From the NCBI GenBank assembly GCA_028687815.1, contig JAQTZK010000001.1, positions 1 through 54,564 of the forward strand: a DNA stretch of 54,564 nt. Reading direction: 5' to 3'. A model generated the notes under the pieces. The model ran no database searches. It had not been told where the DNA came from and was given only the letters and a program-made list of their open reading frames with translations. The translations under genes and the position numbers were made by a program. This document shows, one piece after another, positions 33,355-37,744 of this stretch (the first letter of the stretch is position 1; every line of letters starts with the position of its first letter). Origin of the DNA: Candidatus Altimarinota bacterium. GTDB lineage: Bacteria > Patescibacteriota > Gracilibacteria > BD1-5 > UBA2023.

Positions 33355-34536
33355 CTATCCAAAGCCCAGCCGGAAGTTTCTCGTCCTTGCCACAATCACT
33401 TGGTACTTCCCCGAAATATAAAAATAATTCCAAAATAAGGAATTAATAGTCAAAAGTAACTTCTTACGGAGGGTCAAAGCATCAAAGTGCTGTATGAGTC
33501 CAAGATACGAATTGAGCGTTGAAAGTATCTGCTTTTGCTTGACTCTATTCTGTAATATACGAGCATCTTCGGTAATCATACGGTTTATCGCGCCTATCGC
33601 TCGATAGAAGTTTGTTTTGATCCGTTTGCCCACATAAATCCGATAGGGTTTGATAAGTGCACCGAGAAATGAGACTCCCTTCGAGAAGTATTGGAGGTAT
33701 ATTTTTCTTGGATGGAGTGAGAGCTTCAAATGCTCTGAGAGGAATGAACGAATGGCAGAGATGGCTCATTTGAGATACTCACAGTCATGATGAATGAGAA
33801 TAAAATCATCGACATAGCGTCCATAGTATCAGATTTTTAGGCTCTTTTTGATAAAAGTATCGAGTGTATGGAGGTAGAGATTAGCAAAGACCTGACTGGT
33901 AAGATTGCCTATCGGTAATCCAGTATCAAAATCAGAAAAAAAGAGACTTTTTGACTTTGGCAATCCGAGCCAGTCTTCCCCCTTCCCCTTGATGATACAG
34001 TTTGCTTTGGGGTTATTAAAAATGATTTTTTCGCACAGGTAGAGGAGGAGATCTTGGTCTTGCTCTATAACATCTTGACATATGATTTCGGAAACCGAAC
34101 TAAAGAGAATATTTTTGTTGATATTCATAAAAAATCCCGCTATATCGAGTTTGAGGATATATGCGTCCTGCGTATAGTTATCGGTAGCTTGACGCATGAA
34201 TTTTTCGACACGACGGATACCAAAAAGCGTTCCCTTGTCGACCCTGCAACTGTAGGAGTCGTAAATGAATTTTTTCTCCAAAATAGGATTCAATTGGTTG
34301 ATGACGAGATGGTGAACGATTCTGTCTCGAAAATTTCCAGCAAAAATTTCTCGCTTGACGGGTCGTTCAACGATGAAAGCGATAGATTTTCCGATTTCGT
34401 ACTTGCGTTCTTGGATTTCTTGCCAGAGGGCAATAAGATTAGTTTCGAGATTCATTTCAAAAGCGATAGCATTTGCGGTATTTCTCTTGTTTTTTCGACA
34501 GCTGTAATAGGCAGCAAAAAGATCCTGGAGTTCCAT
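33355..34536 (-). CDS. DGR-type reverse transcriptase
   Basis: 393 residues. RNA-dependent DNA polymerase that copies the TR RNA with adenine-specific errors. Seen: RT fingers motifs (VKREIFAGNFRDRIVHH, YILKLDIAGFFMNINK), the DGR-diagnostic GLPIGNLTSQVFANLYL (SQ in place of the SP of group II introns), catalytic YVDD (YGRYVDDFILIHHD, at 33805-33816), then SLHPRKIYLQ and VSFLGALIKPY. In-frame TGA codons before YYGRY and after EYLK. No maturase or endonuclease domain follows, unlike group II introns. Confidence 0.95.
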
Positions 34537-34557
34537 GTTGGAGAGCGATTATCATAT

Positions 34558-34589
34558 AAAAAACAAAAGCACGGTGACTCATGCTTTTG
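34558..34589 (-). terminator. Rho-independent terminator between TR and the reverse transcriptase
   Basis: On the minus strand CAAAAGCA / TGCTTTTG with a 10-base loop followed by six T, 21 bp before the RT start codon and 13 bp past the TR edge. It would end or attenuate the TR transcript. Confidence 0.65.
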
Positions 34590-34601
34590 CGTACTACTTC
34601 G

Positions 34602-34791
34602 AGTTCTTGAGACACCGTACCGAAAACCCATACGCCTTAGTATTGGTATTACGGTTCGACTGAGACGGGTTCCCTGTATTGAAGTTCTGATTCCAAGCCA
34701 CGGTAGCAGACGACTCCAAGGAAGACCAGAGGTTCTCATTCGTGGTACGATTGTTGAAGGTACCTACCGCATCGTTATTGCGGTTACCTGC
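34602..34791 (-). repeat. DGR template repeat (TR)
   Basis: 190 bp between the avd-like gene and the RT gene, aligned without gaps to VR at 35489-35678. On the minus (template-coding) strand it is rich in AAY codons; a virtual translation reads AGNRNNDAVGTFNNRTTNEN, with Asn at most positions that vary in VR. 18 of 19 TR/VR differences are at TR adenines. Non-coding template RNA rather than a gene. Confidence 0.95.
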
Positions 34792-34925
34792 TAAAATAGC
34801 AACTGTATTTGTGATTATGATGAATGACATCGTAATCATCTGGTAGTACTCGTAAAAACGAGTGTGCTATTGAACTAGAATGGCACGCTCTCGTACCCAT
34901 GAGGTACGAAATTCTCGCCAGCGAG

Positions 34926-35273
34926 TTATCTTGCAGATGATTTTTCCCAAGCAGTGAGTTGCTTGGAGATGGACTCAATACTTTCGGAGAGGGTAACGAA
35001 GTGTGTAAGTGGAATAGTTTTGAGGTCATGTGCCAGACGAAAAAGCAAACGGAGCGCTTCCATGCGTTCACGGGAAACGGTCAAAATATCTCATCGGTGA
35101 TGACGAGAAACATTGGCCCGATAGATCAAGACGGCGAGTTCTAGGAGCTCTCGTTTGATAGTTTCGCCGAGCGTGTATTTGTATTCCCGAGAGAAACCCT
35201 TGATGACATGGAAGGTCGCGAGTGTTAGATCATAGGTGGTTTTGTAGACATTGAGCTCGGTCGCGAGTACCAT
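34926..35273 (-). CDS. avd: DGR accessory protein, Avd-like (four-helix bundle)
   Basis: 115 residues, the size of Avd. All-helical basic protein: VYKTTYDLTLATFHVIKGFS, YTLGETIKRELLELAVLIYRA, then EALRLLFRLAHDLKTIPL. These resemble the Avd/23S-rRNA-IVP (S23) four-helix family, which forms a pentameric ring that binds RT and TR RNA. One TGA=Gly after RHHR. Positioned between VR and TR, the usual Avd place. Confidence 0.88.
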
Positions 35274-35426
35274 AGTTGGGTGGGTAATAATGAAGTCAGC
35301 TATCCACTTGGGATATCAATGAAACCTGGTGAAATTGATGTGAAAATCGAGTACCCGAGGAAACTTTTTAAACACAGTGAAACATCAGTGATGGTCGTAT
35401 GGACAGTTTCACGAAATGTGAGAGCT

Positions 35427-35453
35427 TCCCTACACCGGAAAGTGTCAAAGGGA
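35427..35453. repeat. Imperfect inverted repeat downstream of VR
   Basis: TCCCT-ACAC / GTGT-(3-base bulge)-AGGGA with a 6-base loop, about 36 bp past the 3' edge of VR on the coding strand. Several characterised DGRs need a hairpin or cruciform just after VR for retrohoming; this is a candidate, but imperfect and more distant than usual. Confidence 0.35.
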
Positions 35454-35486
35454 GAAAGAGTACGAAGTGACGAAGGGTACCACTTT

Positions 35487-37172
35487 CTAGTTCTTGAGAC
35501 ACCGAACCGAAAACCCATACGCCTTAGGATAGGTAATACGGTACGACCGAGACGGGACCCCTGGATCGAAGTTCTGATGCCAAGCCACGGTAGCAGACGA
35601 CTCCAAGGAAGACCAGAGGTCCTCATACGTGGTACGAAGGCTGAAGGTACCTACCGCATCGTCCTTGCGGTGACCTGCGTAAGATCTTGACCAGTTGGTG
35701 GTAGTTCCTTGCCAAGCGAGGTCATCATTTGGCCAGTAAGTACTACTCGATGAAGTAAAGTCAGCCTTGGTGGGAATCGCCCAGCCAGAAGGACATACTC
35801 CTTGGGTTCTTGAGCCTTGATTGTTGTTGGAGCTTCCGCCTGCCATGGCAGAAGACCATTGGTAGAGGTAGCCGAGGGAGGATACTGAGGCACAATCTGC
35901 GGTAGTCGTGGAATTGCTTCCGGGACAAGAGTAGAGTCCGGTATCGGTAGTGGACCAGGTGTTGTTTCCTTGGTAACCAGTTGCGGGAGGGAAAGCGAGG
36001 TTTTGGTTGAACCACCAAGTGTTCGCGATACGGATGAGGTTGTAGGTTTTGGTATGGATAGCTCATACTCCAGCGTGAGTATAAGTACGGTTGTCGGTAC
36101 AGGTAGAGGTAGTACCGTTGGCTCCAACACTGTTGGTGACGGCAGTACAGTCACCTCCGCTGGCTTCGGTCCAAGTGGCGGTATTCCCTCCTCCATTTCC
36201 ACTCGTACTCGTATTCACCTTTCCTCCGAGTTGATTTGTGACAATACTATTTCCAAGACTAGTAATAGCGGTAGCACCTGTAGTTGAGAGCAAGGTAGCA
36301 ATGCTTGAGTTATTCGTGATATCTGAAGTAGTATAGGCGGATTTGAGACCCGTGATAAGAGTGTTGAGCTCGGTAGTAGTAGTTGGGGTTCCTCCAGTAC
36401 TCGTATAGACTACGGTAGTTGGATTGAAAGAACTCGCATTCTTGAGGGATTTTCCGTTGAAGAGAAGGGTTCCAGAGAGTGTATTTCCCGTTCCTATTTC
36501 ACGGACTCCGGTACCCGTGAGTGAGGTGATGATACTTGGGACCGCGAGAACATAGGTAAATTCTCCTACGATAGTTTTGGCGGTGAGTCATCCATAGTTT
36601 CCTTTGATATAGACAATTGAGGGAGCACCTGGGGCAGCTTTGGCTTCGGTGGTGAGCTCAGGAAGATTCCAGGCGGTTTGAGCGAGGTCACCTTCATAGT
36701 TCGCTTTGATTTGGTAGGCTTTACCGTAGGCGAGCGATGAGTAGGTGTATTCGGTACTGTCGAGGGGGTCTACTGGTTTTTTGTTCAATCATCCTCCGGC
36801 AATACTACTTCTGAATGCTTGGAGTACGGTGGTTCCTATGAATCATTGGGTCCAGATAGTTCCTCAGGAGTAGGTAACCGTAAGTGCTGGGGCATCAGGA
36901 GTTGGGTAGGATCCTATGGTGATGATGGCGAGATCAAGGGATTTACTCATGTTCGAGATATCTCCGAGACGGGCAGAATCACGAGCTTTGGAAGAGTAGC
37001 CTCCGATGGAGAGGAATCCTATGGTTCCGAGGATGGCGAGGATCGTAATGACTACGATAAGCTCGATGAGGGTGAAGCCAAAGATGGATTTTTTGGTGGT
37101 TGGTAGTGTTTGACTTTGTCCCGATAGTATTTGGCTTGATGGAACTCTTTGGAGAGAAATGATAGGTTTCAT
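35487..37172 (-). CDS. DGR target: type IV pilin-like protein with variable FISUMP/DUF1566 domain
   Basis: 561 residues. Prepilin signal at residues 28-50: KKSIFG then FTLIELIVVITILAILG (cleavage after Gly32, Glu at +5). The middle ~350 residues are Thr/Ser/Gly/Asn-rich with several TGA=Gly codons. The C-terminal domain (~410-561) has the FISUMP/DUF1566 C-type-lectin-like pattern: TWWFNQNLAFP, GYLYQWSSAMAGG, QGVCPSGWAIPTKADF, LWSSLESSATVAW, KAYGFSVRCLKN. VR covers residues ~499-561, the ligand-facing part in known DGR targets. So a pilin-type stalk seems to display a hypervariable tip. TAG stop lies at the VR edge. Confidence 0.93.
35489..35678 (-). repeat. DGR variable repeat (VR)
   Basis: 190 bp, 171 identical to TR. 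Codon changes against TR are Asn to His, Lys, Asp, Ser, Leu, Tyr, Val or Ile, plus Thr to Pro (twice) and Gln to Arg: 16 altered residues and one silent change. The invariant block LWSSLESSATVAW separates two variable clusters. The 3' end (coding strand) matches TR except one A to T. Confidence 0.95.
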
Positions 37173-37230: not shown

Positions 37231-37273
37231 CAAAAAAATCCCAATTCACGGTGGGAAATACCTCGTGAATGGG
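37231..37273 (-). terminator. Terminator-like hairpin in the leader of the DGR target gene
   Basis: On the minus strand CCCATTCACG / CGTGAATTGGG (one bulged base) followed by ATTTTTTT, about 60 bp before the ATG at 37172. It either ends transcription coming from upstream or acts as an attenuator of the target gene. Confidence 0.6.
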
Positions 37274-37299
37274 AAGTTTTGGATTTTTGAGAATATTTA

Positions 37300-37397
37300 G
37301 CTGACGGCTGACGGCTGACGGCTGACGGCTGACGGCTGACGGCTGACGGCTGACGGCTGACGGCTGACGGCTGACGGCTGACGGCTGACGGCTGACG
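37300..37397. repeat. Tandem repeat, 14 perfect copies of GCTGACG
   Basis: 98 bp made of the heptamer GCTGACG repeated 14 times without error, directly upstream of the terminator-like hairpin and the DGR target gene. It has higher GC than its surroundings. Not a coding region: no long ORF uses it. Confidence 0.97.
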
Positions 37398-37744
37398 CTA
37401 TAAGAATATTATTGGGATTTGGTGTCAAATTCATTTTTTGGGAAAAGTAGGAATTTGTAGTGAATTATAGTAGATGTTGGGTGGGGTGCAAGTTTTTGTC
37501 ATTTCCTAGGCATGAAGTTTACCATCATATTCTTCAAGAAGTATTCTTTGAATCAAATATTGCAAAATTTAGATGTTTAAACCGCAGAATTCATATGAAA
37601 TACTGCGGTTTAAAAAACGAAGTATTTTTACAAAGGCAAAGTAAATTCAGTTCTAACTGATAGAGATCAGAAAGTAATATTTTTTTATGAATTACGGACT
37701 AAAATTTCCATAACATCGATGTACGAGTAATAATTTACCCAAAA
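37398..37744. other. Intergenic region between the heptamer repeat and the HTH-PRTase gene
   Basis: About 350 AT-rich bases. I see no supported gene; the one short plus-strand ORF is low quality. It contains a 12-bp perfect palindrome (37576-37614). The DGR target promoter may lie in the heptamer/upstream area, but no clear -35/-10 pair is visible. Confidence 0.5.
37576..37614. repeat. Perfect inverted repeat with 12-bp arms
   Basis: TTTAAACCGCAG / CTGCGGTTTAAA with a 15-base loop. No T tract follows on either strand within a few bases, so it is not a typical terminator; it could be an operator, a weak bidirectional terminator or a structured RNA. Confidence 0.6.

What the first reader, a model, noticed from the sequence alone, without database searches (positions are those of the whole stretch)
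33355..37172. Complete diversity-generating retroelement in a UGA=Gly bacterium
Seen: target gene with VR, an avd-like gene, TR and an RT with the SQ and YVDD motifs, all on one strand in the order target-avd-TR-RT. DGRs are known to be common in CPR/DPANN genomes (established), but this unit shows the whole cassette with matching TR/VR and translation in code 25. Standard-code annotation would break the RT, avd and target at TGA and could miss the system.
Basis: partly seen in the sequence, partly recalled or inferred. Interest (0 to 1): 0.85.

Follow-up and report, generated by a model that had tools for sequence, protein, structure and literature searches.

The report
Self-mutating pilin with repeat-array switch
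A tiny bacterium that reads the stop codon UGA as an amino acid carries a complete gene-mutating cassette that rewrites the end of a pilus-like surface protein, and directly upstream of that protein's gene sits a slippage-prone repeat array that looks like an on/off switch, so the same surface protein may be both randomly rewritten and randomly switched.

Summary
18 of 20 TR-VR mismatches are at TR adenines. Avd matches DGR-specific profiles; the RT's best solved relative is a DGR RT, and it groups with DGR RTs, not with group II introns. UGA is read through: the cassette holds in-frame TGAs and the genome has a Gly-like tRNA(UCA). As such it is a new member of a known kind (110 of 380 sampled genomes of the phylum hold a related RT). 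The unexpected part lies just outside the coordinates: a perfect array of 14 CGTCAGC heptamers (37300-37397) between a promoter-like site with an upstream ORF and a terminator-like hairpin, ahead of the target gene. The same layout precedes all five DGR-adjacent targets with intact upstream DNA in four related genomes (7-nt or 4-nt units), 1 of 42 pilin paralogues and 0 of 18 DGR targets from other families. It resembles the proven phase-variable pilus attenuator of Streptococcus gallolyticus. I propose two layers of variation on one adhesin. Switching and population-level VR variation could not be tested here.

The parts
33355..34536 (-). DGR reverse transcriptase, 393 aa, 2 in-frame TGA
   Evidence: Pfam RVT_1 4e-16; phrog_1423 1.7e-96; PDB 8ub7, E 2.4e-32; tree
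34563..34590 (-). hairpin plus T-run directly after TR (terminator-like, or part of the TR RNA)
   Evidence: fold -14.5 kcal/mol, z -2.6; hairpins after TR also in L053, L056, L017
34598..34791 (-). template repeat (TR)
34926..35273 (-). Avd accessory protein (ORF open up to a GTG at 35375)
   Evidence: Pfam bAvd 5.1e-13; NCBIfam DivGenRetAVD 2.7e-13 but below its cut-off; phrog_3206 2.8e-22; start inferred from relatives
35485..35678 (-). variable repeat (VR), 3' end of the target gene
   Evidence: 18/20 mismatches at TR adenines
35487..37172 (-). target gene: prepilin-type N terminus plus C-terminal FISUMP (Fib_succ_major) domain, 561 aa, 5 in-frame TGA
   Evidence: Pfam PF09603 2e-13, PF07963 3.7e-6; TIGR02145 and TIGR02532 over cut-off
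37231..37273 (-). intrinsic-terminator-like hairpin (-15.6 kcal/mol) and T7, between array and target
37297..37434 (-). upstream (leader) ORF, ATG to TAA, running through the array: MNLTPNPNNILIASAVSRQP...
   Evidence: inferred, layout conserved in four genomes
37300..37397 (-). perfect tandem array, 14.0 x CGTCAGC (7 nt)
   Evidence: in 27 family genomes only here and upstream of the G023 DGR target
37464..37491 (-). promoter-like TTGCAC-N16-TATAAT, 29 nt before the leader ATG
   Evidence: inferred

Best explanation
A chromosomal, apparently complete diversity-generating retroelement in a code-25 (Gracilibacteria/Absconditabacteria-type) bacterium. Shown from sequence: TR has in the past been copied with adenine-specific errors into VR, the last 64 codons of a type IV pilin-like protein with a FISUMP domain. 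Inferred: RT and Avd do this, and the protein is exported, anchored by its prepilin helix, and displays the variable domain for binding other cells. Inferred and less certain: expression of this one pilin is phase-variable. Transcription starts at about 37457, a leader ORF is translated through the heptamer array, and slippage (7 nt is not a multiple of 3) shifts its frame. In the present frame (14 copies) the leader stops at the array's end, 61 nt before the T-run, so the hairpin can form and transcription would mostly stop; with one unit more or less the ribosome runs through the hairpin and would let RNA polymerase into the target gene.
For: DGR; homologous cassettes in relatives with 10/10, 15/15 and 19/19 A-only mismatches (L054, L053, L056). 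Leader: the same order of -10 element, 29-32 nt, ATG, array, hairpin with T-run, target in the window, G023, G016 and G001. Array in 5/5 DGR-adjacent targets, 1/42 pilin paralogues (Fisher 3.9e-6), 0/18 DGR targets of other families; only one other array (a coding hexamer) in 238 kb of this genome and none elsewhere in 330 kb of G023. Two homologous leaders in G001 differ by about four repeat units, and a third has nearly the same flanks but a different 7-nt unit. Proven precedent of the mechanism: S. gallolyticus Pil1, GCAGA repeats in a leader peptide before a terminator (PMC3894217).
Against: No expression, switching or population data. Two of three frames being open through the hairpin is not unusual by chance (22% and 43% of shuffles). 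In G016 all three frames stop before the hairpin. In G001 the leader ORF can be in frame with the pilin, so there the array could act on translation instead. No clear Shine-Dalgarno before the leader ATG. Terminator-like sites also precede 15 of 41 paralogues (loose test). Arrays are absent from DGR targets elsewhere, so they are not needed for DGR function.
Confidence: 0.55

Rival explanations
1. Ordinary DGR; the upstream array is a neutral microsatellite or acts in some way other than phase variation (for example as a binding site or mRNA leader structure).
For: DGRs in this phylum do without arrays (0/18); the frame pattern alone is not significant.
Against: Near-exclusive placement at DGR pilin targets in four genomes at different chromosomal sites, against about one array per 300 kb elsewhere. 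Unit sequence differs between homologous leaders while unit length stays off a multiple of 3, which speaks against a bound motif.
Confidence: 0.3
2. The array controls translation of an N-terminally extended pilin (classical coding-repeat contingency locus), not transcription attenuation.
For: In G001 L054 and L262 the leader ORF is in frame with the pilin, and L262 has a 1-nt change that keeps it in frame after loss of about four units.
Against: In the window an in-frame TAA lies 27 nt before the pilin ATG, and no repeat number joins leader and pilin. A terminator-like hairpin lies between in all loci. The MKP start near the prepilin signal is shared by the window and G001.
Confidence: 0.12
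3. The cassette is a relic: an inactive DGR with a frozen VR.
For: Only one VR; one non-A mismatch inside the 5' part of VR; no strain data.
Against: RT, Avd and target are all intact under code 25, YVDD is kept, and non-A sites of TR and VR are nearly identical, implying fairly recent copying.
Confidence: 0.1
4. The RT belongs to a group II intron or a retron, and TR/VR are a chance duplication.
For: Weak profile match to group II RT (E 3.6e-30, but 105 bits against a cut-off of 300).
Against: Tree places it inside the DGR RTs (100/99 for 13 rows with Fibrobacter and Bacteroides phage DGRs) apart from group II introns; Avd and A-specific repeats. The genome's separate retron-type RT (C43) is quite different.
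Confidence: 0.01

Closest known systems
Bordetella phage BPP-1 DGR (mtd-avd-TR-brt)
   Same: Gene order target-avd-TR-RT on one strand, VR at the target's 3' end, Avd, RT as nearest solved relative
   Different: Chromosomal, code 25, FISUMP pilin target instead of a phage tail protein, no clear stem-loop found after VR
DGRs of Fibrobacter (prophage-like, L017) and Bacteroides phages
   Same: Closest RTs outside the phylum (about 40-45% identity); L017 also has a FISUMP target with 18/18 A-only mismatches
   Different: Target not a pilin, standard code, no repeat array
Patescibacteria/CPR DGRs (Paul et al. 2017, seen only as a citation; Roux et al. 2021, PMC8144416)
   Same: Same phylum, related RTs in 110 of 380 sampled genomes
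   Different: Most sampled CPR RTs fall outside the window's RT subclade; no pilin signature or array found in 18 targets
Streptococcus gallolyticus Pil1 phase-variable attenuator (PMC3894217)
   Same: Promoter, leader ORF with a short repeat not divisible by 3, stop before the terminator in one frame, intrinsic terminator, pilus gene
   Different: Unrelated sequence (GCAGA vs CGTCAGC or AAGC units), sortase pilus vs type IV pilin; not linked to a DGR; shown by experiment there, only by layout here

Membership tests
Diversity-generating retroelement | RT of the DGR clade with [ILV]GxxxSQ and YxDD | tested here: met
   IGNLTSQ and YVDD in the sequence
Diversity-generating retroelement | TR and VR near-identical except at TR adenines | tested here: met
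   18/20 mismatches at A, Fisher 7.7e-10
Diversity-generating retroelement | VR at the 3' end of a target gene with a C-type-lectin-like or other variable fold | tested here: inconclusive
   VR ends at the stop codon and the domain is FISUMP; fold prediction too poor to test (pLDDT 37)
Diversity-generating retroelement | Accessory protein (Avd) | tested here: met
   Pfam bAvd over cut-off, phrog_3206
Diversity-generating retroelement | Mutagenic homing produces VR diversity in a population | not testable with these tools
   no reads or close strains; nearest RT 66% identical
Code 25 (UGA = Gly) genome | In-frame UGA in conserved genes and a tRNA with anticodon UCA | tested here: met
   Gly identity inferred from acceptor stem GCGGG and U73 (own knowledge)
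S. gallolyticus-type repeat/leader-peptide attenuator | Promoter, leader ORF through repeats of length not divisible by 3, terminator before the pilus gene | tested here: met
   layout only:
S. gallolyticus-type repeat/leader-peptide attenuator | Repeat number sets the leader stop before or beyond the terminator | tested here: inconclusive
   true in the window and G023, mixed in G001, not in G016; expected by chance fairly often
S. gallolyticus-type repeat/leader-peptide attenuator | Repeat number varies and changes expression | not testable with these tools
   only indirect: homologous leaders in G001 with 10.7 and 6.4 copies
Group II intron or retron | RT groups with LtrA-type or retron RTs | tested here: not met

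The most novel reading that the evidence does not exclude
In one family of code-25 Patescibacteria, the DGR-targeted pilin, almost alone among a large pilin repertoire, carries a slippage-prone repeat leader with an attenuator, so that phase variation (on/off) and DGR hypermutation (which variant) act on the same presumed host-binding protein. I found no report of a DGR target under repeat-mediated phase variation in the library searched.
Probability: 0.45. Interest if true: 0.8.

Novelty: new variant of a known kind. Interest (0 to 1): 0.6.

Why it matters
DGRs are common in ultra-small bacteria, but what their targets do and how expression of a hypermutating surface protein is controlled is largely open. 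A DGR target that is also a candidate contingency locus would suggest that these host-dependent cells stochastically hide and show a changing adhesin, much as other bacteria switch pili. The arrays are short enough to be genotyped in existing reads, so the idea is directly testable without culture. Standard-code gene calling breaks RT, Avd and target.

Tried and rejected
(1) Group II intron or retron origin of the RT: rejected by the tree and profiles. (2) More VRs in this genome: none by DNA search; the second RVT_1 hit is a retron-type RT on another contig, and the second FISUMP protein (C14) is not a TR match. (3) Direct evidence of VR diversity: no exact TR-core match in IMG/VR, no close strain. 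(4) C-type-lectin fold of the VR domain: the AlphaFold model from a 4-row alignment was unusable (pLDDT 37), so no fold search was run; no solved relative by sequence. (5) TTGACA just before the array as the promoter: considered, but its -10 is poor in the window; the upstream TTGCAC-N16-TATAAT is shared at a constant distance. (6) Effect of UGA recoding on TR safety: none, same stop probability in both codes. (7) TGA at conserved Gly columns: RT positions 236 and 257 are not Gly columns in relatives, so they do not prove Gly.

Full report
Observation. The 194-nt TR and VR are the longest repeat pair in the surroundings. Of 20 mismatches 18 are at TR adenines, changed to T, G and C in similar numbers (7, 6, 5); the two others are near the edges. 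This is far from chance (Fisher 7.7e-10). Thirteen of fifteen Asn (AAY) codons of TR are changed in VR.

Identity of the parts. RT: RVT_1 over cut-off, phage RT family phrog_1423 at 1.7e-96, nearest solved protein the RT of 8ub7-8ube (from my own knowledge these are BPP-1 DGR structures). Avd: Pfam bAvd over cut-off, phrog_3206 'Avd protein of DGR'. Target: prepilin N-methylation signal and FISUMP domain, both over cut-off. In a maximum-likelihood tree the RT lies with other same-family RTs, Bacteroides phage and Fibrobacter DGR RTs (100/99 for the 13-row clade), while three group II RTs and the genome's retron-type RT branch outside. The backbone has long branches, so only the broad placement is used.

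Genetic code. Under table 11 the RT, Avd and target break into pieces. In-frame TGAs run through many window genes, and the genome has a tRNA with anticodon UCA whose acceptor stem GCGGGGG and discriminator U look like tRNA-Gly (judged from established identity rules). The TGAs in the RT are not at conserved Gly columns, so the assignment to Gly rests on the tRNA and on the known lineage (PMC11452946, PMC8080830).

Relatives. Seven of 27 genomes of the family hold a related RT. Cassettes with TR and VR were found in G019 (L052), G023 (L053), G001 (L054, L057) and G016 (L056), and in a Fibrobacter MAG (L017). Pooled with the window, 100 of 306 TR A sites differ in VR, against 7 of 851 other sites. 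Across the phylum 110 of 380 genomes have a related RT at E <= 1e-20. So the DGR itself is a new member of a known, common kind.

Genomic setting. The cassette lies between ruvC and a gene for an HTH/phosphoribosyltransferase-like protein (no family hit; the name is my reading of the sequence). No relative of these flanking genes was found beside the cassettes of G023, G001 or G016, so the cassette sits at different places. The target's N-terminal pilin part has 18 matches in this genome and 71 in G001: one member of a large pilin repertoire has come under DGR control.

The upstream array. Directly upstream of the target is a perfect 14-copy array of CGTCAGC, the only such array in the window. 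Across 27 family genomes three or more CCGTCAG units occur only here and upstream of the DGR target of G023. The DGR target of G016 has 26 copies of a 4-nt unit at the same place, the two DGR targets of G001 have 7-nt arrays of two different units, and one further FISUMP pilin of G001 (L262) has a third array. Controls: 238 kb sampled from this genome hold one other array (a coding hexamer) and 330 kb of G023 none; 41 of 42 pilin paralogues without a neighbouring DGR have none; 18 DGR targets from other families of the phylum have none within 600 nt upstream of the ORF (ORFs there were found mechanically).

Leader layout. In the array loci an ATG lies 29-32 nt after a -10-like element (TATAAT in the window and G023, both with TTGCAC or TTGCAT at a 16-nt spacing; TATACT in G016; TAAAAT in G001), opens a reading frame through the array, and is followed by a hairpin with a T-run and then the pilin gene. 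In the window the 14-copy frame stops at the array's end, 61 nt before the T-run; with one unit more or less the frame runs through the hairpin. G023 behaves alike. G016 and G001 differ in detail. Shuffled tails give two open frames in 22% (window) and 43% (G023) of cases, so this pattern is compatible with, not proof of, the model. Stronger hints are the constant spacing, the near-exclusive placement, and the comparison within G001: homologous leaders with 10.7 and 6.4 copies, and a third with almost the same flanks but another heptamer. What is conserved is a unit length not divisible by three, not a sequence.

Mechanism. Shown from sequence: a complete DGR with past adenine-specific homing into the end of a pilin/FISUMP gene. 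Inferred: surface display and host binding, as argued in general for type IV pili of related host-dependent bacteria (PMC8080830, PMC11452946). Proposed: phase-variable attenuation, as proven for S. gallolyticus Pil1 (PMC3894217). I put the DGR at about 0.97, repeat-mediated phase variation of some form at about 0.6, and the specific attenuation route at about 0.45; the single confidence of 0.55 given for the best explanation is for the compound.

Novelty. In the papers searched, pilin-like DGR targets are mentioned and DGRs of CPR are well known, but no paper found joins a DGR target with a repeat-driven switch (open-access library only). Hence 'new variant of a known kind' for DGR plus leader; the DGR alone would be 'new member of a known kind'.

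Noticed in passing
G000:C43:2-685 (L002, minus strand): A second RT in the same genome, cut by the contig end, retron-type; best PADLOC match RT-Protease type XI (E 5e-48).
   Followed up: partly
G001 (same genus), whole genome: 71 matches to the pilin N terminus in one 2.4-Mb genome, 18 in the window's genome: a very large pilin repertoire with varied C-terminal domains.
   Followed up: partly
L247, L250 (G024): FISUMP pilins whose ends look like DGR variable regions (e.g. WSSLEISSAIAWDEYFHSSYPSQSYRG...GFSVRCLKN) in a genome without any RT match: orphan or former DGR targets.
   Followed up: no
L267, L268 (G016): Two more places match the TR of L056 at 84-86% of non-A sites with 19-20 changes at A sites: remote or former VRs, without arrays upstream.
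   Followed up: partly
L058, L059 (G019, G022): A second, distant RT lineage (about 28% identity); in L059 it sits next to pilin genes with another C-terminal domain, with a promoter-like site and a terminator but no array.
   Followed up: partly
window 34563-34590: Strong hairpin with T-run right after TR and before the RT; hairpins also follow TR in L053, L056 and L017, so it may be part of the TR RNA or limit RT expression.
   Followed up: partly
G001:C28 end and G001:C176 start: The assembly of G001 broke inside a DGR-target array; such arrays may hide DGR targets at contig ends.
   Followed up: yes
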